Below are positions 26,812-64,000 of a stretch of DNA of 64,000 bases, in pieces. Made by a program: the position numbers and the translations under genes. Numbering within the stretch: the stretch's first letter is position 1; each line of letters opens with the position of its first letter. The stretch spans positions 43,358,527 through 43,422,526 of the forward strand of contig OX485808.1 of the NCBI GenBank assembly GCA_950295325.1, written 5' to 3'. Under the pieces are notes generated by a model. The model was not told the origin of the DNA and did no database searches. It saw only the letters and a program-made list of their open reading frames with translations. The DNA is from Polytrichum commune (Eukaryota > Streptophyta > Polytrichopsida > Polytrichales > Polytrichaceae).

Positions 26812-26858
26812 CAGGTCTGGATGCTGGCCTGCAGTACTGACAGGGTTATCTTTCCAGC

Positions 26859-29800
26859 ATGGTGAGTGTTCGGGAGGACGGGAATGAGCAGGCCGGCCAG
26901 ACTCCAGAGGTGCAGGCCTCATGGAAGGTTAACAGCATGACAGAGGCAGAGATGAGTCCGCAGGCAGCTCAACTCCGAGGGGGCATTGAAGAAGCTGGTC
27001 CAAGAAGTAAATTTGACCACATCTCTGCAACGTTGACGTGGAAGGATTTGTCTGTCACTGTGTCCAATCTCAAAGGGAAGCGACGCACAGTGCTGTTCAA
27101 TGCAAGTGGGTATGCAGAGGCTGGCAAGCTTATGGCCATCATGGGCCCTTCTGGTTCCGGCAAATCCACGCTCCTTGACGCACTCGCAGGTAGGGAACTG
27201 TGCTCATGCACATGCATGCACCAGAAGCCAATTGGATATTTGATTGATGCATTACACCGAGTAGACAGAGGCCCAGGTCCTAATGTGAGATGAGGATGTT
27301 TTCAATGGCTGCACTAAAGAAGGTGTCTGTTATTTCGACATTTTTAACTCTGCACCATATGGAACACACAATTAGTGCGAGATAATTAGCAAAGTCAAAT
27401 CGTGCCCATATCCATTTGATTCATTATTTTTGGAGCTCATATGAATATCTTATTCATTTCAAAGTGAAGATTATCTCGCTCATTAAGTGGTCATATAGGT
27501 CCCCCCAATCCTGTTGACTAGTGAGCCTAGAATGGTTAGCATATTTTGAGCACATAGTCCAATCTCTTAAACACATGTCTTTTGATGTCTGCTCTTAGAT
27601 CCACACCTAACCACATATCACTCAAATATAGATGTCCCGATTATATCTATTTTGGAATTAGGCACATCTATCTCACATAACTCTGCAGGACTAGAAGCCA
27701 TTTGATTGAGAAGGCAAACACATTAAGACCGAGCAGATATAGCCCTGGGATTTAATCTGAGATGTGGATGTTTTTGGATGTGGGCAATAGAGTCGAGACG
27801 GGGAATAAAATATTTAGCAAAAATGTTTTTGGCGTGAGAGGCTCAAGGGATACATGTGCTACTACTGAATCAAGAGACCCAAGAGACATGTAAATTTACA
27901 TCTCTTTCTGTAGCAGATCTCTGCATTAACTCACAATTGATCCACTGAGGCTTTTGTTACCAAAAATGCTTGAATCTCCTTTGTCCAGGTCGATGGGCAC
28001 GCAATGCAACACATACGGGTGAGATCCTCCTCAACGGACGCAAGCAGCAAATGTCCTATGGCACTGCAGTAAATCCTGCACTCTTCTCCTACAATTACCA
28101 GCTTAATTGTCAAATTTTCAAGAAAAATTGAAGTGGGTATTGACGTTGCTACAAGTTTGCGAAAACTTGGATCAGTCACCTTACTGAACTCGAATTGGAT
28201 GTGCAGGCATACGTTACTCAGGACGATATACTAATTGGAACCTTGACTGTGCGCGAAACAATCCAGTACTCTGCACAGCTGCAGCTCCCAAGATCAATGT
28301 CACGGGCTGAGAAGCTCACCATTGCTGAACAAACAATTGCAGAAATGGGGCTCCGGATGTGCTCCGACACAAAAGTTGGCAACTGGCATCTAAAAGGGCT
28401 CAGTGGGGGTGAGAGGCGGCGACTTAGCATAGCCGTTGAAATTTTAACCAGGCCGCGCCTGATGTATCTTGATGAGCCCACCAGCGGCCTTGACAGGTTG
28501 AGCAAATTAATTTCTTGAAATTTGTGCATTTGACTTTATAACTTGATTCTAATGGGAACTGGATTTAACTGCTCCAGTGACATGTGCATTTAGTCAAGGA
28601 TGGGGGTTACTTTAAGGAAGTAAGTAAACTCCACAATGTGGAGTTGCAAACCCAAGATTGGTAAGAATGAGAGGGGATTAAGACAATATCCTGAAGTTGT
28701 GCAGCTCTGTCCTCGATCTTCCGGTCCCTGTTAAGGAACCTTATAATGTGGATTGAGAGGGGAGAAAGACAATATCCTGAAGTTGTGCAGCTCTGTCCTC
28801 GATCTTCCAGTCCCTGTTAAAAAACCTTGTATTGTGGAATTCGATAAATAGGAATGACTGCAGTAGGTGTCCCAGCTTTGTTGATCGGTGTTCATTTTTG
28901 TGGTTTTGCAGTGCTGCAGCATATTTTGTGACATCCAAGCTCAGAAACCTGGCCAGAGATGGTAGGACAATTGTAGCATCCATCCACCAGCCCAGCAGTG
29001 AGGTATTCAACTGCTTCGACACACTCTTCTTGTTATCAGAAGGGCGGACCATCTACTTCGGACCGGCATCTGAGGCTACCACCGTATGTCCACTGAACCA
29101 CATTCATACATATATATATATATATAAGGAGCTACAATTCAAATAATCTACTTCAACCCCTCTTTACTTTGTAGAACAAATATGTTAATTTCTTGAAAAT
29201 TGAGTTTCTATGTCCACGGATGTTGCAGTATTTTGCAGCTGCTGGATTCCCTTGCCCAGCTCTTCGAAACCCATCTGACCACTTCCTCCGTGCAATCAAC
29301 CCGGAATTTGATGATAAGGAGCTTGACACATCCCTCATCCAGGTCGGCTATGATTTTCACCCCTTGCTGCCCTCCTTTTATCTGTGGCTACCTTATCTGT
29401 GGATGGACGTTGTCCCTCATCTCTGAATGGAGTTGAATCAACTTGACTAGAGATACGGAAAAGGACATTGACATACCTTGCCATGGCGTGAGCATGCTCT
29501 CAGGATATGGAAAAAGGAGGCGCTCTGGAAGGTCTGACGACTGTGGAGATTGTGAAGATACTCGTCGACACATATGTGTGTTCGGATGCTGCGTATAGTG
29601 CTGCTGTTTCAATCCAACAACTGTCTTCAACTGTGAGTCCCATATTTGCAAATATAAAGCCTTCATTGTCTGTCCTCTGCACAACTTAGGAACTACGCAC
29701 AAGGATCAGGATGCTTACAAGAACCAATGGACATGCTTGATGCCTCCAAGGCGGTTCTAAGATATTCTTCTCAATTCAATGTGTCCTCAGGGCGGACAGC

Positions 29801-31764
29801 TGTTGGACCAAAGCGGAAGCCTTGCAAGTTTCTGGGACCAAACAAGTGCGTTGACACGCAGGTCTTTCCGAAACATGTACAGAGACCTAGGTTACTACTG
29901 GCTCCGCTTGATCATTTACATAGCTCTTGGCATCAGCATTGGTACTGTGTTCCAAAATGTTGGCACCTCATGGAACTCCATCAGAGTAAGTAGGGTGCTC
30001 TACCTATGAACTCCACTGCCCACTACATGATTCGTATCTATTTTCATTGCTACAGAGTGCAACCACTCTGGCAAAATGCAAGACAATTCCTCTCAATGTG
30101 GTGGACAAGTCAATCACACTCTGAAAGAACTGCCTAATCTTTTCGTGAATTCCATCACAATATGTCTCACCTATACACTGCTGGTGCAATGCCTGAAGTT
30201 CTGAAGATTGTGTTACGGTGCATTGGCAGTCGAGAGCCGGCAGCATGACATTCATGACGGGATTCCTCACATTCATGTCGATAGGTGGCTTTCCATCTTT
30301 TGTAGAAGACCTGAAGGTAATATGACCTCTCCTTGTCAATTACCTCATCAAGAACTCGTAGAAAGCAGCTGCTAAACGCACAATTGATACCCCGTCATTT
30401 CTTATCATGTCTTTCTTATCGGTTGCAGGTGTTTAGCCGTGAGAGATTGAACGGCCATTATGGTGTGGCGGCGTTTGTCATGGCGAACTCGCTCTCTTCA
30501 GCGCCTTTCTTGTTTTTCATCTCCCTACCGACCTCACTCGTTGTTTACTACCTTGTGGGGCTGCATCCGGGCTTTGTTCATTTTGCCTACTTCCAAATCT
30601 GCCTCTTTGCAAGTATGTGGGTCGTGGAGAGCGTGATGATGGCCATAGCTGCCCTTGTGAGCCCCAACTACCTGCTCGGCATCATTATCGGCGCTTCAGT
30701 CCAGGTGCGCTCGTTGTCACGGAACTCTCATCTCGTATTCATGCCAAATTTCTCTAACGATCCGCTTCCTGCAATGTTGCAACATGAGTCGTGATTTGTA
30801 AGTACTCAATTTCAACTTGTGCAGGCTGTGTACTTCCTGTGCTCCGGCTTCGCAAGACTGCCTTCAGACTACCCAAAGTTCATGTGGAAGTACCCCATGT
30901 TCTATGTCAGCTTCCACACCTACTTCTTGCAGGTACATTCGCTCACCTGTTCCTTGAGCTACGATCAATCTTGGCAAGTATTTAAAACTTGCTGTATTTA
31001 CAAATAAAAGATTGATGAATCACTCGTGAGCAGGTCCTAAACGGAAAATTTTAGCTATGAACCTTCTTCTCGTAGGCGGATGATACAAACATGAAATTAG
31101 TGCAAGGTGATTAGCAAATCCAAATCGTGACGTAGCCATTTTCCTCATACTTTTTGGAGCAAGTGAATATTATTTTTATCATAGAACGGTCGTATAGATC
31201 CCTCCCCAATTACGTTGACTACTGAACCTGGGCTGGTTAGCATATTTTGAGCACGTAGTCCATCTCTTTTTTTTAAATGCATTTTTAGTGTCCATTCTTG
31301 GATCCACACATGACCAAACACCAATCAATTTAAAGGCGTCTGATTAAGATAAGTAACCGATTTAGGCCCGCTTACTACTTACCTTACCGAAATGTTGGTG
31401 GTTGCAGGGAATGGCTGAGAACGACTTCGAGGGCCTAACGTTCGAGAACTACATCAAGTCGTGGCCTCGCATCACAGGGGAGGATGTGCTGAGGAATGTT
31501 CTGCAGGTGACGACGAGCCGGAGCAAGTGGTGGAACCTCGCCATCCTGTTCCTCATGGTGTTCGCCTACCGCGTCATCTTCTTCGCCACCATCAAATTCG
31601 CGGAGTACATGCAACCCTGGATAAACGGCGTACTCCTGCCCCTGCTCAGACCCGACACCAAAACAGCTTTGCAGCATGCCAGCTACATCGCCCCTGTCTC
31701 CTCCACGCCCCTCCACAACCTCGCCACACCGCAAAGGCCGCTCATCAAGCGACCCCATTCTTAG
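26859..31764 (+). CDS. ABCG half-transporter (WBC type), 11 coding exons, 712 aa
   Basis: Exons: 26859-27189, 27989-28068, 28207-28496, 28912-29083, 29229-29342, 29504-29632, 29791-29985, 30230-30316, 30429-30704, 30825-30932, 31408-31764. All joins keep frame. The order is nucleotide-binding domain then membrane domain, the reverse topology of ABCG proteins. Visible motifs: Walker A GPSGSGKS (residues 96-103), signature LSGGE (202-206), Walker [13 protein letters not shown] (222-233), H-loop SIHQP (257-261). Hydrophobic segments lie near 405-426, 441-456, 482-510, 517-542, 547-568 and 635-660. [10 protein letters not shown] and [13 protein letters not shown] are typical of the plant ABCG11/12/15 clade, whose members export cuticular lipids at the plasma membrane as homo- or heterodimers; the substrate here is inferred. 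Length is normal for the family. The chosen ATG is the first in frame after a probable 5' UTR acceptor. Intron 1 and intron 10 carry copies of one repeat, and intron 3 an 86 bp duplication. Confidence 0.93.
27350..27680 (-). repeat. Dispersed repeat copy inside ABCG intron 1
   Basis: It shares ordered blocks with 31080-31365 (intron 10) and 17590-18100: attagtgcgag..., gtcatataggtcccccc, ggttagcatattttgagcac, and gatccacacctaaccacat. The reverse complement matches plus-oriented copies at 2730, 11530 and 56040. No coding capacity or clear terminal repeats. Confidence 0.65.
28669..28840. repeat. 86 bp direct duplication in ABCG intron 3
   Basis: The block starting agacaatatcctgaag occurs at 28681 and 28767, almost identical through gtccctgttaa. 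The high identity implies a recent duplication. It lies entirely within the intron. Confidence 0.85.
31080..31365 (-). repeat. Dispersed repeat copy inside ABCG intron 10
   Basis: Second intronic copy of the family in intron 1: attagtgcaaggtgattagca, gtcgtatagatccctcccc, ggttagcatattttgagcac and tggatccacacatgacc occur in the same order and orientation. Confidence 0.65.
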
Positions 31765-36483: not shown

Positions 36484-36935
36484 TGGCAGCTGGTCTAAGT
36501 TGCCTTAGCCTTGCTGCCTCAGTTCCTTCACAGCTGAGTTTAACTGCCTTAACCCTGCCGGATCATGTCCTTCGCAGCTGAGTCGAACTGCCTAACCTTG
36601 CTGAAATCAGTCCCTTCGCAGTTGAGTCGAACTGCCTTAACCTTGCTGCCTCAGTCCCTTCGCAGCTGAGTCTAACTGCCTTAACCTTGCTGAAATCAGG
36701 TCCTTCGCAGCTGAGTCGAACTACCTTAACCCTGTTGAATCAGTCCTTTGCAGCTGAGTCGAACTGCCTAACCTTGCTGAAATTAGTTCCTTCGCAGCTG
36801 AGCCGAACTGCCTAACCTTGCTGAAATCAGTCCTTCGCAACTAAGTCTAACTACCTAACCCTGCCGAATCAGGTCCTTCGCAGCTGAGTCTAACTACCTA
36901 ACCTTGCTGCCGCATCCGGTCCCCTAGCAGCTGGT
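36484..36935. repeat. 44 bp minisatellite, about ten copies
   Basis: The word gcagctgagt or a close variant recurs near 36486, 36530, 36574, 36618, 36663, 36708, 36750, 36794, 36837, 36880 and 36927, giving a period of 42-47 bp. Each unit reads roughly gcagctgagtcgaactgcc + ttaaccttgctgaaatcag + tcccttc. The period is not a multiple of three and the unit-to-unit variation includes indels, so it is not protein-coding. A GA-rich stretch (36938-36990) follows. Confidence 0.9.
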
Positions 36936-37914: not shown

Positions 37915-38140
37915 CAAGTTCTAGGGAGATTTTTAGACATAATCGATCGAGATCCTAGTGTTTCCACATCCAACCAGCTACATGTTTACATCTTTCAATC
38001 TTTCTTTATTAAATTGGGGTATTTTATCTACATTCCTCTAAATTGATGAGTAATTTTCCTAAAGTCTCGAACTTGAATCGGTTATTTCTCAAATTCAACT
38101 AGTTCATCTTTAACTAGCGGTCGGTTCTCCTCATTCATTG
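37915..38140 (-). mobile_element. hAT-type MITE, copy G
   Basis: Reverse-orientation copy with the shared interior (aattggggtattttatctac, gaatcggttatttctcaa). It starts CAAGTTCTAGGGAGA and ends TTCATTG. Flanking octamers catgagtt (37907-37914) and gatgagtg (38141-38148) match at 6 of 8. 226 bp. Confidence 0.75.
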
Positions 38141-38148
38141 GATGAGTG

Positions 38149-39001
38149 CACCAAAATTATGGACATTTTGTGGACCCTAGCACTAATGTGTATAGAGGTT
38201 TGATAACAAAGTACACTAAACTAGCTATGATATTTAGTGTCATATGGTATTTAATGTCACTATGGTAACTTTTCATATGACACTTCTTATGAATAAATGA
38301 ACAAATATTGTCATGGATGATGGACAAGTTCATCCATTGGCCAAAATTCTACCTTCTCTTGTCAACAACTTGTGATGAAATATTGTCATGGATGATTGTA
38401 ATTTGGATGAAAATTCACTTGGTAAGTGATCGTAATTGCAACACTGTGAATCTATAATCCCCCAAAAAAATTTACAAGGAATGACAAATAATGTTGGGTT
38501 AACATTTAGTGTTGGTGACACTACACTGCGGTTTACAATTAGTATTGAGCAAGACAATTAGAATTGGTGACATTAAATATCATATTTGGTGTAGTTATTA
38601 TACAAGGTCATGCTACAAATGAAGAACAACATGTGTGCACAATTGTTTGCATTTTTTGATCAATTTGACTTTCTTATTTGCATTCTAGAAGCTTGAAACT
38701 ATCATCCCTTTCTACTTACTACACTTATATATGGATTGTTGATCATTTGGATAGAGTTTATGTTGCATTTGAGATGGTTTGCAACTCTTGATTCAAAATT
38801 GTGGAAAACGAATGGGAGTAAGAAGTTAGATGCGCATCTTCGGTGAAAAGAAAAGAGACAAAGCAAAAACATATATAAAATTTTTGACATGATTATTTCT
38901 TTTTGTACGCATGACACTAATATTGTTAAGGTTGGTGGTTGGTGTTGAGATTAAGATTAAGATTGAGATTTTTGGTGGAGCGTCCTTTAGGGTTCGGATG
39001 G
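38149..39001. other. Non-coding interval with TA-MITE-like termini
   Basis: tacactaaactag and gatatttagtgtcat (38209-38258), and acactacactg (38518) with atatttggtgtagt (38582-38595), resemble termini of the CACTAAATA family. Boundaries of individual elements are unclear. No coding signal. Confidence 0.4.
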
Positions 39002-39009
39002 GTCTGAGC

Positions 39010-39214
39010 CAATGAATGGGGAGAACTGCTAGTTGTAGATGAACCAGTTGAAGTTCAAGACTTCATGAAATAAAACTACTTATCATTTTAGAAGAATCTA
39101 TAGAATATACTTCAAATTAATACAAAAGAACAGAAAGAGCACAACATGTAACCGGTTGGACTCGAAAACACTAGGATTTTGACTGATTATGCCCAAAAAA
39201 TTCCCCGGACACTG
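39010..39214 (+). mobile_element. hAT-type MITE, copy C
   Basis: Starts CAATGAATGGGGAGA, ends ttccccggacactg, 205 bp. Flanking octamers gtctgagc (39002-39009) and gtctaagc (39215-39222) match at 7 of 8. Contains the family landmark catgtaaccggttgga. Confidence 0.82.
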
Positions 39215-39222
39215 GTCTAAGC

Positions 39223-40080
39223 ATTGATATTTGCAATCAAACCATAAATAAAAATTTATAAAATATATTGATTTGTTCAAACATTTTGATTTTGATTTCA
39301 ATGTTGTTTCTTATGGTTCATACGTTACTATAATATGTTTTAAGCATATTTAAATGTTGACATGCCTTTGTTTATGTCGGTACATTACTTATATAAACTT
39401 AGGTTTCTATACTTTTGGTGGCACCCAAGCTTATTCATATTAAATACACTAGGGTTTGAGGGCCCTTGATCTATGATATACACAAATTATGTGATTGGTT
39501 GAGAAGTTGGAGATGGTTCAAGTTCACTTTACATTAAACCTTGAAGGCCAAAAGGGACCATAGGAATTAGAATAGATGAAAAATCTACACATTGTCCTAC
39601 ATGGCAAGAGGTGGCTATTGTTTCATGATCTATTGAATATTACGTTAAACCCATCTAAAAGAGTTGGGTCTAACACAAAACTACTAATTGCGAATATGAA
39701 TTAAATTATCACTAGCTTCTAGAAATATTATACTACCAAGGTGGGTCCCGAACCCGAACATATGTTGTCGTTTTTCTCAATGTGGTCCGCTTTCACATTG
39801 CTCGAAACTTGAGGGCCCATTGGTTGAAAATTTGGATTTCTACTTCCCACGGTACAGCCTTTGGATGATTTTTTTAGGGCCCTCAGATTTTCACGGTCAC
39901 GGCTCTTGGTCTGTGTGTAAAGCGGCCCTAAGTACATTCGAGAGTGAAGAGTTGCGCAGAGAGGAGTGTTGGAAATCTGAAGAATCGGAATTACTTATGT
40001 GTAATGTGCAGACACTTACACTTGAGCTTTTATGCTTTGCAAGTGTCTATGATACATTGAGGAATCGAATTGAGGCATAA
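39223..40080. other. Upstream flank of HRQ1 with a diverged MITE
   Basis: The stretch around 39460-39933 ends cacggctcttggtctgtgtgtaaagcggccc followed by TAA. It appears to be a decayed copy of the GCCACTTCACACAC MITE family; its left end is uncertain. It lies about 170 bp before the start-codon repeat array, so it may be within the HRQ1 promoter. No TATA box could be identified. Confidence 0.4.
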
Positions 40081-40103
40081 TTGATTCAAGAGAGGGATAG
40101 GGC

Positions 40104-40480
40104 ATGGTGGAAACAGAGGAGAAGGAGAAGGAGAAGGTGAAGAATTGAATTAAATTGAGACATAATAAAATTATGAGAGGGACAGGCCATGGTGGACTCA
40201 GCAGAGGAGAAGGAGAAGGTCAAGAATTGAACCGAGGCATTATTGAATGAAGAGAAGAATAGGGCATGGTGGACTCAGTAGAGGAGCAGGAGAAGAATTG
40301 AATTGAGGCATTATTGAATGAAGAGAGGGATAGGGCATGGTGGACTTAGCAGAGGAGAAGGAGAAAAATCGAATAAGGCATAATTGAATGAAGAGAGGGA
40401 TAGGGCATGGTGGATTCAGCAGAGAAGGAGAAGGTGAAGAATTAAATTGAGGCATAATTGAATCAAGAGAGGGAAAGGGC
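40104..40480 (+). promoter_or_regulatory. uORF array: five tandem copies of the HRQ1 start region
   Basis: ATG codons lie at 40104, 40189, 40266, 40337 and 40407, before the true start at 40481 (spacings 85, 77, 71, 70, 74). Each begins with ATGGTGGA in a G(-3)/G(+4) context, like the main start. The peptides run 40104-40148 ([14 protein letters not shown]), 40189-40230 ([13 protein letters not shown]), 40266-40301 (MVDSVEEQEKN), 40337-40387 (MVDLAEEKEKNRIRHN) and 40407-40445 (MVDSAEKEKVKN). The main protein starts [14 protein letters not shown], so the uORFs are copies of its own first codons. All stop before 40481 and none overlaps another. If the transcript starts upstream they would be expected to lower translation of HRQ1; this is inferred. 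Confidence 0.75.
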
Positions 40481-43400
40481 ATGGTGGACTCAGCAGAGGA
40501 GAAGGAGAAGGAGAAGGTGGAAGTGAATGTGCGGGCGCTGGATGGCCAGCAAGTGCATGTGAAAGTGCCATCGCACTTGTCTGTTGCAGATCTCAAACTT
40601 CATTTACAACACCTCCAGTGGCCTGCACCTGGCATCACACAATTCCATCTCTTCCTCCAGGTAAGTGAGTATGAGTGCACAAAACAAACTCCTGCCCCTC
40701 TCCAACGACGGGTGAGGGTTTGCTGCTCTAAGGGTTTTGCTGTCCAGGGTTTAGGGTTTAAGGGTAAAGCATATATGGGGACTTATAATAGCTGTGGTCT
40801 GAGCCATTGTTGAGCAAAAGTGAAGAAAGTGTTTCAGGTTTTATGTTTGTTGGATTGGATCGACTTTGTCAGTGTAGCCAGCCATAGACCAATCGCAGCT
40901 TCAGGTTGTTTAGTAATGCCCATCAGGAAGAGATTATGCCCTCCAAACCGCTGTTCTTAGGGTGGGTCACACATTCAAGCACATTCACCTCTCTCAGAAA
41001 ATGTCATGATCTAACAGACATTTACAAAGTTCGAAATGGTGTGCATAATCCTTTCTTGATGGAAATTACGTTAGAACAGATCATGGCCATTTGGGTGGAC
41101 CCAACATTACATTATTTAGTACGTAAGAATGCTTCTGTAAAGTTTTCGTTGACGTTGAGTTTTAAAATGGGTTGCTCTTATGGCAGGGAGCCAAACTCGA
41201 TGGTAAGGCTTTAGTTGCCCCAATCTCCTGCAATGGAGGGTTCTTGGTTCTGGTCCCCTTCGCCAAGAAGAACCAGAAGAGCCTTGAGAGGGTACCGAAT
41301 AGGGATGTGTGTAGGGTGGAGCCGGAGGTTGTTCCTTCACAGGTTCCATATAAAACTTGGTTGAATACGCATAATCTGATGCATTCGGCTGCTGGAGATG
41401 CTTGCAAGGATGGGGGCAATGGCCATTCCACAAATCCGCCTAAGGGCAACCTGCCTCCCACGAGTGTCTCAGAAGATCTTTGGCATGCCATTGCTGCAGA
41501 CTTAGCTTCTTTCCACATGCCTGCTGTGGAGGACACAATTTTGTTGAGTGGTGGTGAGTATCATTTCATTTTTGATATTCATTTGTCATAAGTTAGCTGA
41601 TGGGAGGACAACTATGCTGTGTCTATCTTCAGTGAACTTGGGACTTTCTCTATCAACTGTAATTTTCAATTGGAATTGCACAATTGTCTAGTTATTTGCA
41701 GAGGTAACCTTAACCCTTCAGCGTCTACGAGGCCCACTCTGGCCCTCTCCGTGCACAAGAATGTGTTTTTGAGCTACTTACTTTCATTTCTAGCCAATTG
41801 TGTCAAATGTAACCCTATCTAAAATTTGCTCATTCTACTAGTGCACTTTTCAAATTGGTTGAATACCTCAATGTTATTGAAATCTTTGGGATTAAAATAT
41901 ACAATCCAGATGCCCTTGGATGCAAATGCATACTTAGTATTTTGATCATCAATGTCACATGTGAGTGCATTTCTAGTTTCTTCTTGACATAAGATAATGC
42001 ATCAAATAAAGTTTCAAACTCATAAGTATTAAAAAAACATGATTTTATAGTAATGGCGAAGCTCGGAGATAGAGCCCCTACGTCCTTGTGGTTATAAATT
42101 GAACCCCTACTTCCTTCCTTTAAGGGTTAAGTTCGCTCAATCGATTGGGATGTGATTAAGCAGATGAAAGGGACCTGGATCAGCATGGAAAGGATGGAGG
42201 TCTGTCGCAGCCAGAGAGCCTTCAAGAAAAAGACTCGGTGGGAAAGTTGAAGGCAAAGAGGAAAAGGGGGAATGTTGCAGGTCCTTTGCCACCTGCCATA
42301 GAGGAACTGAGGAGGGTGTTCACTGCACTCAATACTGTGTATGGGTTTCTTCAGAGACAACATATGCAGCCAACATGGGTAAATGTGAAAGAAGCATTGC
42401 AGCAGCTCTGCTTTCAGGAGGGCAAAATGCAGACATGTGTTCAAGCTGTCAAACATTTAGCAGCCCTTTGCCCTAAGGCAAGTTACCCTTCTCACGAAGT
42501 GCACATCACTTCACTTTGTTCGAGTGGCCTATTCTGGGCGTTTCTTGGTGTTTAGAGCCTTTCATTAATCATGATTACATTGGGGTGTAATTTCTCCTTG
42601 ATTCATTAAACCTGAAGTTGTATCCCGGGTATGGAAGTGATACATGAGTAAATCCAATTCTAGTCACATTGATGTCCCTTGATAGTTATCTGGTCAAACA
42701 AAGTTGGGTATGTCTTGAGGTATGAGGATGACAACACATGTTTACCAAAGTGGATTGAGATTATTTATATTTCTATCAAAAAAGGTTGCATACACCATCT
42801 TTATAAAAACTGATGTTTATAACTTGTATTGCAATTATGTGGCCCGTATATAACTCTGAGGCACTGGAAGAATCTAGATAGACTGGAAAGTATTGGAGGA
42901 CTTACGCTTGTTGTGGGGAATTAATTGGATTACTTTGTCTGAATCAGCTCCTAGTGCTGAGTAATATGTCAGAGGAGGGTCAAAATATTTCATTCAGCAT
43001 CGATATGTTTGATCCTTCAAAGGCTGATAACTCAGATCCAAAACAGCAGCAAAGTCTTCCTGTTCATCAACTGCAAGAGATTGGGGCTGGAGATCTCTTG
43101 CCTAGTGCAGGTACTCTTTACTCCATTCATAATTTGTTTCCATATCCATCATTGAAACATTTTGAATAAACCACTAGAAGCTAAGAATTGAGACATGTAC
43201 ATAATTTTTGAGCCTGGGTTGACACTTGGCTGGACAGATGGGAGGCGTATTACAGATAAGCAAATGCGTAATGCTATTGACAGGCGCCAAAAGGCTTTTG
43301 ATACGTTACTGTCCTGTATTTTGAAGCAGCTTCAGGTGCCACATTAGCTCCCCAAGCCCTCCACTTTTCTACCTCTGTAGACTCCTTTTTGTTTCTCTTC

Positions 43401-46400
43401 TTACTTCTTGCGCTCTACTGAGATTAGGCATGTACAGATGCATATGGCATGGTACTAACCCATGTTTTAACCTTGCCTTCATGTCCTGGTAGTATCCTGC
43501 ATTTAAAAAATTATAATAGCGCACTTAAGTACACAGGCCTGGTGCAAAGTTACCCAAAGTACTACCGTGTATGGGGCCCCAACTTTTTATGACAGATGTG
43601 TGCCATACTGCAATTTAGGGCACCATTGGTTTTGTTTATAGGCCTTGCCTCTTACCTGCTATTGGTTTTTATGACTGAGTCTTCTTGTTAGCACCTGAAT
43701 ACAGTTTAGACTCTTGGGTAGGTTTCTGTATAGCACTTACCAGGATTCAAGTTGATTATTGTCTTCACTACCCAGAGGATTGAAGAGCTTATAGTGATTG
43801 CTACACATTCTTGAAGTTGATGGTTATAAACCTCTTGGTGGACCCCACAAACTTATGACAGCCTTCCTTCTTATATTGTTGCAGCTTTTATGGCAATTTT
43901 GGTCTGAAATGTTCATGGTAATCTTCCTTATGTGCTTTCTCTTAGTCATCTACCAGGCCAAGCTTGAAAAATTGGACTTGAGCAAGTTGAGCATAGAGGA
44001 AGTGCTTTCCACTGCTAAGGAAATGGCACCAGAGGACATTGGAGATGTATCAAAGCCTGGTTTACCCTCTGCCTTGCCCAGACCACCCCGCCACCACAAG
44101 AAACTCACACGCTGCATTGTAAGTCTGATGAGAAATTTGAGCTTCAAGTTTCTGTGTAGGTGACAAATTGCACTCCAATGTATAGAAATATGTATGTAGG
44201 CTCACACACTTCTCTTGGGCAACACTAGAAACTTAAAAGAACACACTTCAGTATTATGTTTCATACCGTATTAGGTTTGTCAGTTTGATTTCATTATATG
44301 GAGACAGTCTCTCTGTTTGTGTGTGTCAATTTCAGATAGAGGGGCTAGACCTGGCTATTAAAGATTTAGTGGTGCATGGCAAGCACAGGACATTGTGGAC
44401 ATGGGGGCTCTGGAGATGCTGCAGCACTTGCAGGATAAGCTTGGTTCACTTGGACAGGTTCCTGCACTTAGAGCTTTAGGTTGTCTCATTGCTGATAGCT
44501 CCTTCATTCTTTAAGCACAATTATCCGAAGTGCTTCATGTTGGTATTGTTTTTTTTTTCATTCAGTGGCATCCTTCTTATATGGCATAAAGGCTTATCAA
44601 TGGACATAATGTTGAATTGAGTGCTGTAATGCATGGTTTTTTCAGGGTGTAGTATGTACTGGACTGCATCAGGTATTGCTCATCAAATAGTCCTTTTGGG
44701 ATACGTTCCAAGTGATTCACTGTTTCATTGTTTTATTGGTACATACAGATTGTTCACTGTGAGCACTTGAAGGCACGAGCTGCCTCATATGGAGAGCTGG
44801 ACTTTAAGTTGTCTCCATTTACTCAAGGAGCATTGGAGCGATTGGGTATCTCAAAACTTTACACACATCAGGTGAGCAAATAACAACACAAAAATCCTTA
44901 TTGTGAAGGGCGGTTTCAGCAATGCATGGATAGCACTCTGGTGATCAACTATGATTTTATTGTTTCCCTGGACTACAGGCTCATGGAGTGAATGCAGTAA
45001 TGAATGGGAAGAGTATTGTGGTGGCCACGTCAACTGCAAGTGGAAAGTCCTTGTGCTACAACGTTCCTGTCTTGGAGGAGCTTTCAAAGAGTCCCAATGC
45101 TTGTGCTCTTTACTTGTTTCCTACAAAGGTACTTTTCAATCTAAGATCCTTAGGAATTTGTACTGATGTTATCAGAACGTCAGGAACAAGTAACTTTGGT
45201 AGGTTTGCGGTCTATGTGCAATGACCATGTTCAAGAAGTAAATGGCATTTATTGGGAGGAATCGTCAGTGTGAAAGTCATAACCTGTGCATCTCCAAGGT
45301 AATCTCCTAAATTTGTTCTATATCACTATCTTTACTCTTTTATAAAGGTTGGTTTTTTGTATGGATATCCAGGCCTTGGCCCAAGATCAACTGCGAGCTT
45401 TACATGAGTTCTCTGGACAAGAAGGTTCCAAAATAGGCATGGGTGTATATGATGGTGACACCAATCAGGACTTACGTCTCATGTTACGGGATTCTGCTCG
45501 TTTGGTATGACTTTCAATATGAGCATTGTCCTATCCATAATTGCTAATATTCCTTACTAGGTTCTCTGTTTCAGTTGATGGCAATTCTAGATGCCATGGG
45601 AATTTTTGTGGTCATCTAGTTGCTATATTACTTGATCAATCAATGAAGCTGTAATTTAATGTATTCTTTTAGGAGTTCTTTTATTTTATTTTTCTGCAAG
45701 TGTCGAAAACCCAAGGTTTGAAGTTGATGCAATATCTTGGGCATGTCATTTTGCAGCTCATAACCAATCCAGACATGTTACATGTTTCCATCATGCCATC
45801 TCACCGTCAATTTACACGTTTCCTCACCAATCTCAAGTAACCCTGTCTATGCCTCCCTCTTCCACGATACTCTTCAATCCACTTCACATAGTTTATATCT
45901 GCTGTGTGGATCATTCATTGCACTATATATCCTTTTGTAGCCCATGAACCTCCAACAAGTATTTCTTATTTATTTATGAAGGGTTCAAGTCCTCCAGGGA
46001 GCTTCTGGCAAAACTGATGTACTACGTTGCTTTGCAAGGTTTTGATATGTTGAAGTTTTTTCAGGTTTGTGGTTGTAGATGAGGCACATGCATACCGTGG
46101 GGTATTTGGCTGTCACACGGCTCTCATTTTAAGACGTTTACGTCGCCTTTGCAACCATGGTAAGGTCTTGAACTTGTGAATTAGCAGGTTTCAAACATTT
46201 GTTTGTTGGGCTAGAATCAGTGTGGATTTGGGAACAATGGTGGATGTAAGTGGAGACTTACTTTCATGCGTCACTTGATGACATCAGTATTCATTGAAAG
46301 GATGACCTCTTCAAGTTCGTTATTTCAATCAACATCAATCTCGTGATGTGTATTTACCCTCCTAGGTAGGCCATGTATGGGAAGAAAACATAGGCAAATT

Positions 46401-49400
46401 TCATATACAAAAATGGAATCTAGGTTCACAATAAATGGAAAAATCAAGTGAATACAAACTGAAAAAAGGATTATCAAAACATGTGATGTCTTGTGATTGG
46501 TGCACATCAAGCATGGTTAAATTTGATCAATGTTAGTAGCTTAATAAACAAACCTTTCAAACAGGCTATTGTTGTATCAGTAAAGTTCATGTAAAGTGCA
46601 AGTTTATAAAGATGACTTCTCTTTATTTGTTTGCAGTGTATGGAGCTAAACCCACATTTATTGTGTGTAGTGCCACTGTGGCCAATCCTCGGGAGCACAC
46701 TATGGTGATGCCTCTATACTATCGCTATCTGACTTCTTTTTAACTTGCATTAGATTGCTCACTTTTACATGCAATTAGTGGTGCAGTTCTATTTTGTGTT
46801 GTTCTCATAAACCAGCATGACTAAGCTAAACGAATCCTCATTCTTCTTTATACTCCTAGCAGGAACTGGTGGGGCTGCGAGAGGTGGAGGTCATCCTTGA
46901 AGACGGAAGTCCACATGGACAAAAAACATTTGTATTTTGGAACCCACCTATTATTTTCACACCAGTAAGCTCTACTACTTTTTCAGATTAAATAGGAATG
47001 ATTACATGTTCTCTTTGAAGGCACACCTCAAGTTGCAGTGCAGTGTTATCCTTTTGAGATTGTGAATTTGTGGAGTGAAAATATAAGTTGGGTTAGTCAT
47101 ACTCTTGACGATTGTGTAGATCTGCTTTTAATCTAAGGTTCATGATTGTGCAGACCAAAAGTGGTAGGAAGAACAAAAGGCACAAGCCATCTGCGAAGGT
47201 GGATCAAGGAGTCACTCCACAAATACAAATGAGGCGTGCCAGGTATATTGCCATTCTGTCTCAAAGCTGCTACATAGCCAAATTGTGTTGGAAAATTCAA
47301 CCCATGTTGACCTATGCTTTCTGTCAATTCTGTCATCTCCATAGATCTAATGGTAGGTTGCTGAAACAAGTACTGCACTAACCATATATTCTTTATGGAT
47401 GTTTTGAGTTAGCAGCCCAATAGTGGAGGTGTCGTCATTGCTAGCAGAGATGGTCCAACATGGTCTTCGGTGTATTGCATTTTGCAACACTCGCAAGTTA
47501 GTTGAACTTGTCCACAACTACACGTAAATCTTCTACTCTTTCTCTTATTCTATTCACTAACCATAATGAACAGGAGATATTTGGCTGTATGTTGCCAGTT
47601 AATCCTCACTGGGGTAGTCACTTTGTTTTCCTGTTCCCTTTTACTGTTTGTCTTTGCTAGTTTTTATATAATGCTTTGAGCTCAATCTTCCTTCAGGTCA
47701 ATATAAGTACTAACCTGACAAGCATACTACATTACATTGCACAGTTTGATATTTACAGTTTTGCAATGCAAATTTACATTTTTAATCTCATGTCTGATTT
47801 TCTGCCACAGACGTGAGATTCTGAAGGAGACAGCTCCAACATTGGCTGACTCTATAAGAGCGTATAGAGCTGGATACACTGCCCAAGTATGTTTTGTTTC
47901 CATGTTCTTAATAATTATTCACCTCAATGTTATGTATTAGCCAGAGATATTGGGGAAAGCCATCGCACTGAATCTGCTCTTCTACAATCTCGATGATATT
48001 TCCTTGACTTCCTTCTCTTTCATAATTGTTAAGTGTCAGCACTTTGATGTTGATCAAGGGGCATGGGTGTACAATGAAACAGTCTCGGAGAGAAATTGAG
48101 AAGGATTTGTTCGGAGGCAGGTTGCGAGGTGTAGCTGCCACCAATGCATTGGAGCTGGGTGTTGATATTGGTAGTTTGGATGCTACAATCCATCTAGGCT
48201 TTCCTGGATCTGTGGCTAGGTACCCATTTATTTAATTTACAACCCACATCTTGAAAGCAAATTTGTTATCAGAGCTGATCTATGTTGATGCTTTGCTGTA
48301 TTTGATAGGCTACAGTTATCAGGCATGTCATTTTGAGAAGAACCACGATATTAGAGTCATCCTCTAACTCAACATGACTTTTGGTTGGGAGTTGGTTGTT
48401 TTGCATACAATATCTTCCATGTTTGGTAGTTTGCGGTGTATTCTTGGAGGTAGTGTGGAGGATTGAATGTAAAACATTTTATATACCTGTTCATTGAGAG
48501 TGAAACTCATTTTGGTATGCCAAGAGGTGCTAAATTGAGTTTGGTCCTCAATGAACCACAATAGGTTGCTCTTCATTCAATTTTAAACTCTACCTACGAA
48601 CATGCACCACAAGTGGAAATAAATCTTGATAGGACTATTATTGTATGCAAATCAACCAATAGGAAATCATAGGGAACCAACTCCTGACGGAAAGTCGCTT
48701 TTAGTTAAAGAAAAACTCTATTATGTCATGTCTTCTTGTAGGCAGTGTATAATTTATATATATGCAAGTTAATGAAATGTGCCACAGCTTGTGGCAGCAG
48801 TCAGGCCGCGCAGGGAGGAGGGAGAAGCCTTCACTTTCTGTTTATGTGGCCTTTGGTGGTCCATTGGACCAACACTTCATGAAGTCACCTCATAAATTGT
48901 TCATGAAACCAATTGAGAATGCACAAGTTGATGCTAGTAATCAGCAGGTGAATAAACTTCTGCGTTATTTACTCAAGAAGCTTCCATTTGTCACCTGAAC
49001 TTTCATATCTCTATGCACCTAAGAGTTAGTGTTTTGTGCTCTCTTTCTCATCAATTGAATATATGATTATCCGTCCCTCACCCGAAATGTAATTTAAATC
49101 CTTTAACTCTTGTAATTTAACTCTTGTAAAGGATTTAAATGTAATTTAATGACAAGAGTTAAAGGATTACTGGATGCTCTGCTTGGAATCTATGACCTCT
49201 GACTTTAATTAAATGCAGGGATTTACAAAATTTGGTGTTCATTTCAGCATGTTGTAGTGGAAGTGGAAGTTAGCTTGTACTTGTGGAAGTTTAGACCTTG
49301 TTACCTTGAATCAGTGTAACCTTATTCACAACACCTTTGAATTTCAGTCACATGTTCCATGGGGACATAAATGATTTTTAAGGACATATGTTGAAACCTA

Positions 49401-52400
49401 ATGGATGATTATTTAGTTTGATGATTAATATTTTTGATTTTTTGTACAATGACAAACTCTTCACTAGTTTGTGGCAACATTGAGCCATCTCAAGAGTTGG
49501 TAACGTCAATATATATATATATATCTTGAATAAATTTCTACATGTGTAATGTTCTGCTGTTGACAATGATCTTTACATATGGCATGACTACTACCGACAT
49601 TGTCTTCATATGATCTTTGAATTGCTTTATTCTAATTTTCTCACTCTTTCCTGCTGCCCAAATTCCTATCAGCATTAAGCTTGACCTATCAATTAGACTT
49701 CACTGCTCTCATTCTCAAATAGTACATACAGAAAGTCAGTAACAGAAATTCTTGTTATTGTTCTTTGCTCACTGTACTATGTGACTGGCAGGTACTAGAG
49801 CAGCATTTGATGTGTGCAGCTGTTGAGTATCCCCTCCATGTTGAACACGATGAAATGTTCTTAGGTTCTGGATTGCAGTCAGCCATAGACAAACTTGTAA
49901 AAGAGGGAATGTTGGGACGGCATCCAACCAATGGTCCACCAGACAAGTCATGGCACTACATAGGCCAGGAGGTGCAATCTATTTATGAACACTACTTTAC
50001 TTTCACTTTCGTTTCATCAGAATAACACTAGAACAACCATGTTGATATTTGCGTTTGTGGGACCCCAGAAATCGCCATCACAGGGAGTGAGCATCAGGGC
50101 TATTTCACCCGACAAGTACACTGTCATTAATCAAGCAACCAATGAAGTGATTGAAGAGGTGGAGGAAAGCAAGGCATTCTTTGAGGTACTCCATTATCAT
50201 TTGGGAAACTATATTCCGAGTTACTTATGTGTGTTCTTATAAGTTGTCTGCCTAACCACCAACACACTTGTTTTTTCAAAGGTTGGCTCCGAGTGACCTT
50301 TAAATTTTTACAACTGGTCCTTTGCCTGTTACGGGACTCAGTTCTTTCATACATCTTTCACAAAATTCCAGAAGGAGCACAGGTGCACCCTACTGTATTG
50401 TACATGTATATTGCTTAACCTTGGTTGCTTAGTGCATTATTATCCTGGAGCAGTTGCTAGCTTCATTTCTGTAACATCATAGCAAATGTTTGCATGTCTT
50501 TGTGCAGGTGTATGAAGGTGCTGTCTACATGCATCAGGGTAAGACATTCTTATGCAGGACATTAGACTTAGCTGCAAAAGTGGCTTTGTGCCAAGAGGCT
50601 GACCTCAAGTATTATACCAAGACTCGAGACTACACAGATGTCCATGTCCTCGGGGGTGAGCTGGTAAGCATTTCTTTGCATAGCCATGTATGTACTTCAG
50701 TATTTAAGTTTCTTATATAAGAATGGACACTAAAGTCTTGCCATATACCACTCAAACACAGGTGTTCAATTAAGAAGAGTGACCACATATGGCCTACACA
50801 CCTTAAAGATTCTCATATTAGTTTTTGGTTCTTTTTCCTCCCTCTTGGGTGCTTTGTTTAGGCATATCCAGCCAAGGTGATCGAAACAAAATATCCAACA
50901 ACAACAGCCCAGGCCAGCCCATGCAAAATCACCACAAAGTGGATTGGATTTCGGCGGATTTGGCAAGGGACTAATGAGACCTTTGATTCAGTTGATCTCT
51001 TTCTGCCAGAAGTGTCATATGAATCACAGGTGTGTGAGCTTCCATGCACATGTGGAACCCCCTCTTTTGTCTGTAAATGTCAGTAATGCCAGCTATTCAG
51101 TAAGTACAGCAGGTCTGAGATTGTTATTCTCTAATGTGGGTTTTTTTGTTAATGACAGGCAGCTTGGATTCGAGTGCCCCATTTAATAAGAAGTGACTTG
51201 GAGGCAGAGTCGCTCTCGTTACGTGAAGGCATCCATGCTGCCTCTCATGCACTGCTCAACATCATGCCCTTGTAGGTTCTATGGCAGTTCTTCCAAATTT
51301 TAAAACCATCGCATCATGCACATATTGACAGGGCAAGTCACTGGAAAATATCATTAGAATGCACTTTCTTGAGATTTTGGATTTCTTAAGCAACCTATGG
51401 ACAACTATATGAAAGAGGGTCCTGTGTCTGTTGATATCATTGGATTTAAGTCACTATCTGGTGCTTCACAGGTACATAATGTGCAATCCTCAAGACTTGG
51501 GGTGTGACTGTGTCAATCCACACGACACCCGCTACTACCCTGAAAGGCTTCTTGTGTATGATAGGCATCCTGGGGGCATTGGTATTTCTGTTCAGGTTTG
51601 GCCTTGACTATGGCTGGAACTGTTGCTTTTCCGCTTATCATTTTGCATGTTTTTGATTTTTAATCCATTATTTACCATATTGTTGGGTTTCTACATTTCT
51701 ACACAAGACCAAAATTGTGTGATAGGTTCTAAGCCATAGTTCATTACAGATCATTGTGTCCATCAAATTACTCTGTGATGCTGACTTTACTCTCAGTTCA
51801 TGACCAGTATATGGCTTTCCCACTGGTCTTACCCATTAGGAAGTAGACGTCATCATATTTTATTTCTTGTGTTCTTTTTGTGAGTAATGAAGTGGTGATT
51901 TTCTTTCTTATGTGCTATGTAGGCACGCCCTATGTTCTCTGAGCTTCTACAAGCAGCTCTAGAGCTCTTAGTAGCCTGTGAATGCAGTACCAATATTGGT
52001 TGCCCAAACTGTGTCCAGGTGAATCTCAGATACTCCACATTTTTAGCACATTAATTTGTCTAAGTGTATCATCTTTCTGTTATTGATCTTAGAAGCTCAC
52101 AATGGCAAAGTAAGTTTAGTTTTTCAATCTGAAACCATATCTAAATTTGGTTAAACTTGGTACATCTGCAAGTGAAGGTACTAAGGCTGGAATTATCCAC
52201 TGGGCTTGTCGGATGGGGCTGTGAACCATGAAGGAAAGACTCTAAATGGGGAACAACTATATTAACTCATTCTTTTGTGTTTTATGTTGATGTAGTTGTT
52301 GGCATGCAGCGAGTACAATGAAGTGATCAACAAGCGTGCTGCAATCATCATTCTGCAGGTCATAATACTCATTTTCTCTTGTAGAAGTCATTTCTGAATC

Positions 52401-60559: not shown

Positions 60560-63500
60560 GAACACACCTCTATCAAATGATTCATATCTTTATAAGGGCA
60601 TGATTATCTTCATCTGATAATGGAAAATATATCGTGCAAAAGAAGCTAACTATGGAATATATGATAGCATGTTTGATGCACGAGATGTCCATGAGAAAGG
60701 AGAAGGACTTCAAAGGTAATGATGTCGTATGGTGTTGCATCAAGACAAAGGGGGCAATCTATCTTCATATAAAGACACCAAGACATGCTACTATTATGAC
60801 AAACCGGGCACATTGTACGTTTTTGTTACATGACAAAGAATAAGAATAAAAATAAATGCAAATAATGCAACGAATGATGATGATTATACATTTGCAATGC
60901 AATATGTAGCACATTTCAAGATCATGTGTAAGTAGATCATGGATTTGGTAGCATCAAAGCACATGACTTTCCATAGGGCGTCAATTAACATATATAAGGT
61001 AATTACTCTGCGCAATATTTGTTTGAATGATGATAGCGTTGTGAAAGAAATCAGAATAAAATTCATTGTTATTGATTTATCATTGAAAGACAAAATAAAA
61101 AGAATTTGTATACACATGTCCAAGTTGAAAGAAAATTTTCTCCCGGTAAACAAATTTTATTATGCGGTTTGAAGGTACAATTCAACCCATATCAATATAT
61201 TGTGAGAGCTTCTAATGGTGAAGTTATTGCACTAGTGCCACGTAAAGGCAACTTGTTCCAAATGAATTGGACCAAAGTATAGAGAGTGAATGTGGCCAAC
61301 TTGGTACACTCATCAACAAATGATGGTGCACTTGAGCTTAGACATTGTCGGCTTAGGCATTTGAATGTGAAGAATAGTTATGTACTTCATAACATGGTGA
61401 GTGGTCTGAACTTTGGTAGAAGAAAATTGTCCTACATTTTGTTGGTTGTGAAACATGCATTGAGGGTAAATAACATAAGGCAATATTTCCCAATAATGAG
61501 GGAAAACAAAAAACTTAGCCTTTGGAGATAGTACATTCGGACGTGTATGGCCTCATAAAGACCACATCTATGGGTGGTGCAAGGAATTTTATCACCTTCA
61601 TTGATGACTTTTCAAGAAATGTATGTGTATACATGTTAAAGTCCAAAGAAGATTGCTTGGAGAAATTTAAAGAGTTCAAGGCACTTGTAGAAAAATACGA
61701 TTGGACCATAACATGAAGGCATTTCGATCGGACAATAATGTTCATTTCCAAGCAATTCAAATAGTGTTTTAAAAAACATGGCATTGAGAAGCAAATACCC
61801 GTCCTATATAGGCCTCAACAAATTGGAGTGGTAGAGCATGCAAATTGTATCATCCTAGAGATAAAAAAGAGCATGCTTCATGCTCAAAACTTTAACAAAT
61901 CATTTTGGACAAAAGCGGTGGTAAATGCAGTTTATATATGTAAGTGATGTCCAACATAAGTCTTGCCCTTCATTACACCCAAAGAAATATGGAGTAGGAG
62001 GACGTCTTGTATGTATGCGTGTTGTTGGATGCATGCATATGCAATGGCGTCTAATGAAAATAGGAGTAAGTTTGATACAAAAAAACTCCAAATGTTTGTT
62101 CTTTGAATATTGCGAAGACACCAAAGTGTATAGACTCATGTGCATGCAAACCAAAAACATTAGTAAAGATGTTGTATTCATGAAGGATAGTATGAGTATT
62201 GGGAATGACTTGGAGAAGTGTCCAAGTGGAAGAAATGAAGCCTCTGCATTAATTGTGGTGGACAAATTAATCCAAATAGCATTTGGTTGATGAGGGTGAA
62301 AACATTGAGGATTGTGAGGAGCAAGTAAAAGGTAACCATGTTACAAATCAAGATGTAAGAGAAAGGTCAATAAGAAAATGATGTTAATGTGAAGAGACTC
62401 GGTAGAGAACCAAGATACTCCATAAGGAAGCATTGACCATTTAGACTCAGAGTGGTAGAAGAACCACATCTTGCCTCAATATGGTGTAGAATGGACCAAT
62501 GTGGCATCTCTTGATGATCATTTGAGCTTTTGTGCAACCATACAATTCAAATATGCAAGCAAGTGGGAGGCCACAATGCAAGAAGAATACCACACACTCA
62601 TGCTCAATGGAACATATGAATTAACTATCATTCCAAAGGATCACAAGAGTCTAGGATGCAAATGATGTTCCTCAACAAGACGGATGTATTGGGCCAAATT
62701 GTTAGGTGCAAGGCAATGTTAGTAACAAGGGAATATTCTCAAGTTTCCGTTGTAGACTTCAATGAAACCCTTGCCTCCATGTTGTCAAGTTCATCACCAT
62801 TACATGTATAGTTGCAACTGGAGAAATCATGGATCGGGAGATCCACCAAATGGATGTAAAAGTATCATCTTTTAATGGAGAGTTGGAGGTGGAGATTTGA
62901 ATGGATCAACCCATGGGATTTGTACAAGACAAGAAGGAACATCTTGTGAGCAAACTTAAGAAAATATTGTATAGGTTCAAACGATCACCAAGGGCGTGGT
63001 ACCACCGAATCGACTTGTTCTTCATCATTAAGGACTTTTCTAGAAGCCTAGCATACCATTCATTGTACGTTAAACTAATGGATGAGTATTTGTTGGTGGT
63101 AGTCCTCTATGTTGGAGACTTGATCACTTTAGCAAATTGTCTTATTAAGTTGAAATGGCTCAAGTTGAGCTTGATAAAGAATTTGGAATGAATAATCTTG
63201 GAAAGTTGCACAACTGTTTCGGAGTAGAATTTGAGATAAACAAGGAAGCATGCACCATCACCATGGGCCAAATGAGGTACATGGAGGAGGTCCTCAAACA
63301 TTTCAACATTGAAGAATGCAAACTGGTTGGAACCTCATTCGATGTAAACTCCAAGTTGTTAAAACTTTTAGATCATGAATTTGGAAATGTGCAAGGAGAA
63401 ATGAAAGGCATTTCATGCAATGTGGGGGTAGAAATGTTCAAGTATGCAATAGTAGGTACATATGTTGAACTTACATTTGTAGTAAGTAGAGTGAGCAATT

Positions 63501-64000
63501 CATGACTAAAGTTGGTCCACCACAATGGATGGCCATAAAATGCATCATAAGGTATTTGAAGGGCACTTTGGATTTCAAATTATGTCTCGGAGGCAAGGAT
63601 CTTACATTGAACATATTTTGTAATGCCAATTGGGAGGGAGATGCAAATAACTAGAGATCCACCACAAAATATGTGATTCTGTTGGTGTTGGAATTATTTG
63701 GTGGAAATACAAGAAACAACCAACCATTGCATTATTTATAAGGAAGGCATAATACATGTTCACTAGCCATTACACAAAAGGCACAACTTTTGGCAGATGC
63801 GGGATTGTACAAAAAGAATAAATGTCCATCATGTGTGACAATCAAGGATGTATAGTGTTTGTAAAGAAATCGACATGCCATTTTCGCACCAAACACATCG
63901 ATGTACAACATCACTTCATTCGAGAGAAATTGGGGGGAAAAAATATAAAAACATGCTTGAAGTATTGTCCAACAGGAGATATGATGGCGGATGTGCTTGC
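60560..64000 (+). mobile_element. Ty1/Copia LTR retrotransposon, decayed, runs off right edge
   Basis: Domains appear in Copia order on the plus strand, broken by many stops and shifts: gag end with a damaged CCHC knuckle (60634-60870); protease region with SKHMTF after the position of the catalytic DSGA, here DLVA (60939-61172); pre-integrase HRxxRLRHLN (61330-61370); integrase core with EIVHSDVYG, FITFIDDFSR and KAFRSDN (61515-61740); reverse transcriptase from WEATMQEEYHTLM to LYVGDLI (62471-63130); RNase H with MCDNQGC and RTKHIDVQHHFIRE (63550-63960). Integrase before RT defines Copia. No 5' LTR, primer binding site or full gag is visible, so it is 5'-truncated within the window. It is inactive. 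Confidence 0.9.
62471..63500 (+). pseudogene. Copia reverse transcriptase remnant
   Basis: The best preserved part of the element. It runs SKWEATMQEEYHTLMLNGTYEL (start of RT), then IHQMDVK (62850), MDQPMGFVQDKKEHLVSKLKK, RSPRAWYHRID, and the catalytic box reads YVGD instead of YVDD, losing a metal-binding aspartate. It then continues with a frameshift into GVEFEINKEACTITMGQMRYMEEVLKHFN (63215-63310). Several stop codons and shifts separate the pieces. Confidence 0.85.

What the first reader, a model, noticed from the sequence alone, without database searches (positions are those of the whole stretch)
40104..40480. HRQ1 start codon duplicated five times upstream as a self-similar uORF array
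A 70-85 bp unit containing the gene's own translation start has been tandemly copied. The leader therefore offers five ATGs in the same G(-3)/G(+4) context as the main start. Each opens a 10-16 residue uORF whose peptide copies the HRQ1 N-terminus ([10 protein letters not shown] and variants), and each closes before the next ATG. This could be a strong repression or reinitiation device for a DNA-repair helicase. Copy number could vary between individuals and act as a tuning knob. It could also be untranscribed drift, with the cap site below the array.
Basis: partly seen in the sequence, partly recalled or inferred. Interest (0 to 1): 0.75.

Follow-up and report, generated by a model that had tools for sequence, protein, structure and literature searches.

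The report
Gene start copied into upstream minisatellite
In a plant-like genome, the stretch of DNA holding the start signal of a DNA-repair helicase gene (HRQ1) is present in five extra copies just upstream, which would put five decoy start signals before the real one if that stretch is in the messenger RNA; it looks like an old, ordinary tandem repeat with a probable dampening side effect, not a purpose-built switch.

Summary
A degenerate minisatellite (about 40059-40515, six copies, 70-85 bp apart) spans the HRQ1 start. Its five upstream copies carry ATG with G(-3)/G(+4) and open closed uORFs of 14, 13, 11, 16 and 12 codons.

The 'device' reading is weaker. Closure is automatic: each spacer has stops in all three frames. 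Retention of the ATGs (P 0.21) and the peptide changes (5 nonsynonymous, 3 synonymous, p 0.29) do not differ from drift, in low-powered tests. Such arrays are common here: 17 in a 200-kb sample, 3.25% of bases. The unit was found at one place only in the 408-Mb assembly. A scanning model with assumed parameters predicts a constitutive attenuator, not a stress switch, with the first uORF counting most.

Most likely this is neutral minisatellite growth across the start codon that, if transcribed, passively lowers HRQ1 translation. The copied segment reaches only about 45 bp upstream of the ATG and a simple filter found no splice acceptor, so a place inside the leader is likely. Transcription was not testable here.

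The parts
40059..40515 (+). Minisatellite of six copies, 70-85 bp apart, spanning the HRQ1 translation start (limits approximate)
40104..40148 (+). uORF 1, 14 codons, frame +1 to main ORF
40189..40230 (+). uORF 2, 13 codons, frame +2
40266..40301 (+). uORF 3, 11 codons, frame +1
40337..40387 (+). uORF 4, 16 codons, in frame with the main ORF but closed; has CGA where copies 1-3 have TGA and copy 5 has TAA, and runs five codons further
40407..40445 (+). uORF 5, 12 codons, frame +1
40173..40250 (+). Additional uORF (25 codons, A at -3, A at +4) overlapping uORF 2 in another frame
40247..40306 (+). Additional uORF (19 codons, T at -3, A at +4) overlapping uORF 3
40318..40383 (+). Additional uORF (21 codons, T at -3, A at +4) overlapping uORF 4
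40388..40450 (+). Additional uORF (20 codons, T at -3, A at +4) overlapping uORF 5
40481..40660 (+). HRQ1 exon 1 (presumed): main ATG, first ~12 codons shared with the repeat, then a ubiquitin-like region; strong donor at 40661
   Evidence: nearest in-frame stop upstream at 40448
41187..52051 (+). Rest of HRQ1 (many exons; limits approximate, 3' end read by eye and not established): DEAD helicase, Helicase_C, HRQ1 winged helix

Best explanation
A segment running from about 45 bp upstream of the HRQ1 ATG to about codon 12 was tandemly duplicated several times, giving a six-copy minisatellite that has since drifted (shown by sequence). The unit carries leader stops, so each copied start became a short closed uORF with the gene's own start context rather than an N-terminal extension (shown). 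Because the unit does not reach far upstream, the promoter and cap site were probably left outside it and the array grew within the transcribed leader (inferred). There it acts passively: scanning ribosomes mostly initiate at decoys, and HRQ1 is translated only by those that leak past or resume after short uORFs, which lowers output constitutively and independently of the peptides (inferred). No adaptive role is needed.
For: Copies and contexts. The 421-bp array query matches one place in the assembly; a 23-nt unit pattern with up to 3 mismatches gives 6 hits, 5 in the array and 1 elsewhere with 3 mismatches, copy 1 being too diverged to count; the tool warns that its DNA search can miss common or simple sequence. 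Stops in all three frames of each spacer. Leader 40060-40540 folds no better than shuffles, z = +1.49, 97 of 100 at least as stable. No AG in 40091-40480 passed a filter of at least 7 T or 10 C+T in 16 nt upstream (intron 1's own acceptor has 7 T, counted from the letters printed), and donor-like sites in the array score 4.9-5.4 against 12.2 for exon 1's donor in a matrix of my own. Compatible with drift in the five upstream copies: no change at the ATG P = 0.21; none at -3, ATG, +4 P = 0.07; longest unchanged run of 9, P = 0.14; with all six copies the ATG and run tests give 0.18 and 0.12; 5 nonsynonymous to 3 synonymous changes, p = 0.29 (counted by hand, two changes at stop codons left out). 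Background: 17 arrays in 200 kb, 3.25% of bases. RNNATGG is the favoured plant start context, and main ORFs behind uORFs are reached by leaky scanning or reinitiation (PMC11062462, passages); reinitiation after short uORFs needs a minimum intercistronic distance (PMC5972666, passages).
Against: No RNA or ribosome data, so the leader position is inferred. The longest invariant block (CATGGTGGA, 9 columns) does sit on the start codon, P for -3/ATG/+4 is 0.07, and the indels that I see in the uORF codons are all multiples of three (by eye), which hints at constraint; the GA tract has a 3- and 6-nt periodicity of its own. Four more ATGs lie at 39997-40049, so that stretch shows no obvious avoidance of upstream starts (not tested), as might be expected if it is not transcribed.
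Confidence: 0.55

Rival explanations
1. The array is bypassed: the main cap sites lie within or just upstream of the last copy (each copy may have carried its own cap site), so the decoy starts are rarely in the mRNA and have no effect.
For: Five strong-context uATGs should be costly; uORFs are in general selected against in 5' leaders, less strongly in lowly expressed genes (PMC7889888, passages); plants can omit uORFs through alternative transcription starts (PMC11062462, figure legend passage). No TATAWA between 39400 and 40480 helps to place the cap site upstream.
Against: The copied unit reaches only about 45 bp upstream of the ATG, so the ancestral cap site would have to be unusually close to the ATG or have moved later (inference). 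A GGCCCA/ATTGG pair at 39814-39823 would suit an upstream promoter, but these motifs are no commoner near here than elsewhere in the window.
Confidence: 0.3
2. A regulated reinitiation switch of GCN4/ATF4 type: after an early uORF, ribosomes short of initiator complex skip later uORFs and start at HRQ1 under stress.
For: Serial uORFs with about 330 nt between the first stop and the main ATG. In 3 of 12 model sets output does rise with scarcity before falling, most at leak 0.1 and resumption 0.3 (0.028 to 0.045).
Against: All elements are alike and 19-40 nt apart; the other 9 of 12 sets are flat or fall. The parameters are assumed, and the four extra ATGs are left out of the model.
Confidence: 0.04
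3. A purine-rich (R-motif-like) entry array: GA tracts in each copy recruit poly(A)-binding protein and allow internal entry past the uORFs.
For: The array's sense strand is 40% A and 36% G, with GGAGAAGGAGAAGG tracts; R-motifs are purine-rich leader elements that can let TBF1 translation avoid its uORFs (PMC11062462 and PMC9998923, passages).
Against: The tracts encode the EKEK stretch of the HRQ1 N-terminus, so they came along with coding sequence; no binding evidence; the R-motif work quoted is on Arabidopsis immunity.
Confidence: 0.05
4. The uORF peptides themselves are selected (conserved-peptide uORFs).
For: They resemble each other and the HRQ1 N-terminus.
Against: Resemblance follows from duplication; the substitution pattern shows no significant conservation (8 changes only) and the stop position differs in copy 4.
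Confidence: 0.02
5. Assembly artefact.
For: Tandem repeats can be misassembled.
Against: Copies differ at many sites (core identity 74-90%); the array matches one place in an assembly with seven contigs over 40 Mb.
Confidence: 0.01

Closest known systems
Minisatellites in promoters or leaders (copy-number 'tuning knob' repeats)
   Same: Tandem units of tens of bp next to a gene start; could alter expression.
   Different: The unit includes the translation start itself, so it multiplies start codons. In an Aspergillus survey only 4.3% of tested promoter-repeat/expression relationships were significant (PMC3516485, abstract).
Multi-uORF leaders (GCN4, ATF4; plant multi-uORF leaders)
   Same: Several short closed uORFs before the main ORF.
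   Different: Here they are near-copies of one another and of the main start, closely spaced, with no visibly distinct permissive and inhibitory members.
Strong-Kozak short uORFs dependent on DENR-MCT-1
   Same: Short uORFs with strong start context, where reinitiation is reported to be independent of the distance to the main ORF (PMC5972666, passage).
   Different: Described there for Drosophila and humans; dependence on the factor is not testable here.
R-motif leaders such as TBF1
   Same: Purine-rich tracts together with uORFs.
   Different: The tracts here are part of duplicated coding sequence; one also lies inside the main ORF.

Membership tests
HRQ1 helicase | DEAD and Helicase_C core plus HRQ1 winged helix | tested here: met
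   PF00270 108.3 bits (cut-off 26), PF00271 33.3 (23.5), PF22982 WHD_HRQ1 50.1 (27) on hand-joined exon pieces; best solved match YprA helicase 6znp, E 2e-58
HRQ1 helicase | N-terminal ubiquitin-like domain of plant forms (recalled) | tested here: inconclusive
   PF00240 16.5 bits and PF11976 16.3 bits, both under their cut-offs
Minisatellite | Head-to-tail copies of a unit of tens of bp | tested here: met
uORF-containing leader | Upstream ATG ORFs closing before the main start | tested here: met
   nine such ORFs start between 40104 and 40480
uORF-containing leader | Presence in the mature mRNA and ribosome engagement | not testable with these tools
   no RNA-seq, CAGE or ribosome profiling available
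GCN4-type delayed reinitiation | Layout that strongly raises main-ORF output when initiator complex is scarce | tested here: not met
   model only, parameters assumed: of 12 sets, 3 flat, 6 falling, 3 rising at most 1.6-fold before falling
Conserved-peptide uORF | Purifying selection on the peptide | tested here: inconclusive
   5 nonsynonymous to 3 synonymous, p 0.29 against neutral: no sign of it, but 8 changes within one genome; no other species available
R-motif leader | PABP-dependent cap-independent translation | not testable with these tools
   composition only

The most novel reading that the evidence does not exclude
In this minisatellite-rich genome, expansion of arrays across translation starts is a recurrent mutational source of uORFs that come ready-made with the gene's own start context, so HRQ1 would be one of many genes whose translation is damped by copies of its own start, with array length setting the level. 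I saw no second example: among the 17 sampled arrays no ATG opened an ORF running more than 60 codons past its array, against 100 for HRQ1, but the sample was not aimed at genes.
Probability: 0.2. Interest if true: 0.65.

Novelty: new variant of a known kind. Interest (0 to 1): 0.33.

Why it matters
It shows a simple mutational route to strong uORFs: duplicating the start region copies the gene's own start context, and leader stops in the unit turn each copy into a short decoy ORF. If transcribed, it offers a natural series for measuring how repeated near-identical uORFs combine. Five text searches listed no paper whose title or abstract start describes a start-codon-spanning minisatellite that makes self-copy uORFs; two searches listed only 20 of 48 and 20 of 46 papers, and the listed papers were mostly not opened, so this is weak evidence of absence in print.

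Tried and rejected
Splicing out of the array: no AG passed a simple filter and donor-like sites are weak. In-frame N-terminal extension: blocked by TGA at 40448. RNA structure at the starts: weak, no better than shuffles; the G-quadruplex option of ViennaRNA changed none of the energies, although G2-type motifs overlap five of the six ATGs. Rfam over 38000-42000: one sub-threshold hit, 41624-41704. A second HRQ1 gene to compare leaders: the N-terminal query gave 2 matches, both in this gene; the helicase query gave 11, among them a distinct gene on C1 with 61% identity over 41 residues. Comparison with other species: I used no collection holding plant genomes, so not done. Organism: not named; chlL at 472.9 bits (cut-off 345.15) on a 146.6-kb contig, probably the plastid, and seven contigs over 40 Mb point to a photosynthetic eukaryote that is probably not a flowering plant (loss of chlL in flowering plants is recalled). 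A paper search for a matching moss assembly showed no fit among the 12 of 71 listed. A NAC-domain (PF02365) search for land-plant origin and a search for other copies of 39600-40080 did not complete.

Full report
What is there. The sequence at about 40059-40515 is a six-copy tandem repeat with start-to-start spacings of 85, 77, 71, 70 and 74 bp. Each copy is a leader piece of about 40-46 nt ending in GGGC or GGCC, the start codon in ATGGTGGA, a short GA-rich coding piece, and a junction back to the leader piece (lengths). The last copy is the HRQ1 start at 40481 and continues into the gene; the first five are decoys. All six ATGs have G at -3 and G at +4. The five uORFs are 14, 13, 11, 16 and 12 codons long and leave 40, 35, 35, 19 and 35 nt before the next copy's ATG. 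If the whole stretch is transcribed, nine uORFs start between 40104 and the main ATG.

The gene. Exon pieces downstream match DEAD, Helicase_C and the HRQ1 winged helix above Pfam's cut-offs, and the best solved match is the YprA helicase. The N-terminal ubiquitin-like match is below cut-off. The first in-frame stop upstream of 40481 is at 40448, so no upstream in-frame start can extend the protein without splicing. In Arabidopsis HRQ1 acts in DNA crosslink repair (PMC6747210, passages).

Is it more than chance? As an array, yes: six copies in register, and the 421-bp query matches one place in a 407.8-Mb assembly; a relaxed unit pattern finds 6 sites, 5 of them here and one elsewhere with three mismatches. 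Five GnnATGG in 421 nt are reached by 152 of 5,000 shuffles, but the looser RnnATGG count by 1,774, and the - strand has another 420-bp stretch with five GnnATGG. As a kind it is less remarkable: in twenty 10-kb stretches taken at round coordinates of six contigs I found 17 arrays of period at least 20 bp, at least 2.5 copies and score at least 150, covering 6,502 of 200,000 bases. Six of these 17 show at least three closed short RnnATGG ORFs on one strand (counted from the table); three of the six are related arrays of about 230 bp, and I did not ask for one ATG per copy. At that density, starts lying in arrays need not be rare unless selection removes them; I did not count them, and saw no second example.

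Is it maintained by selection? I could only compare copies within one genome. In the 50-column ungapped core (-38 to +12) the five upstream copies have 25 changes from consensus. None hits the ATG, probability 0.21 under random placement; none hits -3, ATG or +4, probability 0.07; the nine-column unchanged block on the start has probability 0.14. With all six copies the first and last are 0.18 and 0.12. In the uORF codons I count, by hand, 5 nonsynonymous and 3 synonymous changes (two changes at stop codons left out) against an expected 76:24, p = 0.29. These tests have little power, treat copies as independent and ignore gene conversion. The indels that I see in the uORF codons are all multiples of three, while leader parts of copies 2-6 differ by 1 and 5 nt, but the GA tract has its own 3- and 6-nt periodicity. 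Closure of the uORFs needs no selection: each spacer has stops in all three frames.

How it would work. The array is purine-rich (40% A, 36% G) and the leader is weakly structured (z = +1.49), so scanning should meet each ATG in turn. If each of five strong starts lets 10-50% of ribosomes pass, leakage alone gives 0.00001 to 0.03. The recursion, with a cap assumed at 40000 and the four extra ATGs left out, adds resumption after short uORFs: at a reacquisition distance of 50 nt and leak 0.1-0.5, output is 0-3% without resumption and 3-63% with resumption of 0.3-0.9. When reacquisition is slowed, output is flat in 3 of 12 sets, falls in 6, and rises at most 1.6-fold before falling in 3, unlike a GCN4-type switch. 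At leak 0.2, resumption 0.6 and 50 nt, 0 to 5 uORFs give 1.00, 0.45, 0.41, 0.31, 0.24, 0.18: the first counts most. All parameters are assumed, so these are predictions of shape, not measurements.

Is it in the mRNA? Not shown. For: the duplicated unit reaches only about 45 bp upstream of the ATG, and leaders are usually longer than that (general knowledge), so the cap site probably lay outside the unit and the array grew between it and the ATG. No AG in the array passed my pyrimidine filter, and donor-like sites score 4.9-5.4 against 12.2 for exon 1's donor. Against: such a leader should be costly, and upstream ATGs are generally selected against (PMC7889888, passages), so a later cap site inside the array may have been favoured. 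No TATAWA lies between 39400 and 40480, and four more ATGs lie at 39997-40049.

Copy-number tuning. Core copies are 74-90% identical, mean corrected distance 0.19, so the array is not freshly expanded; that degenerate arrays are less unstable is general knowledge, not tested. In one survey of promoter repeats, 4.3% of tested relationships with expression were significant (PMC3516485, abstract).

Verdict. I file it as a minisatellite spanning a start codon, a new variant of a known kind, with a probable passive dampening effect that 5' RACE would test.

Noticed in passing
36486-36933: A 44-bp minisatellite of nearly 10 copies about 3.5 kb upstream of HRQ1; I did not link it to a gene.
   Followed up: no
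40240-40596 (- strand): A 118-codon ORF runs antisense across much of the array, probably because the repeat has few stops in that frame.
   Followed up: no
40752: Telobox-like TAGGGTTT in HRQ1 intron 1 (meaning of the motif recalled).
   Followed up: no
26841-30794: Pieces of an ABC transporter gene (ABC_tran and ABC2_membrane matches over cut-off), with an 86-bp two-copy repeat at 28668-28838 between them.
   Followed up: partly
60604-64000: Frames that read like a decayed Copia-type retrotransposon polyprotein; recognised by eye, not searched.
   Followed up: no
L029:4532-5428, L034:1654-2324, L034:6820-7489: Sampled arrays of about 230-bp units share a peptide stretch (QRRQPTHDKELL) that recalls a retroelement reverse transcriptase region (recalled); some tandem arrays here may be built from mobile-element pieces.
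   Followed up: no
L007 (G000:C1:34748746-34748868): A second helicase with 61% identity to HRQ1 over 41 residues around the nucleotide-binding motif.
   Followed up: no
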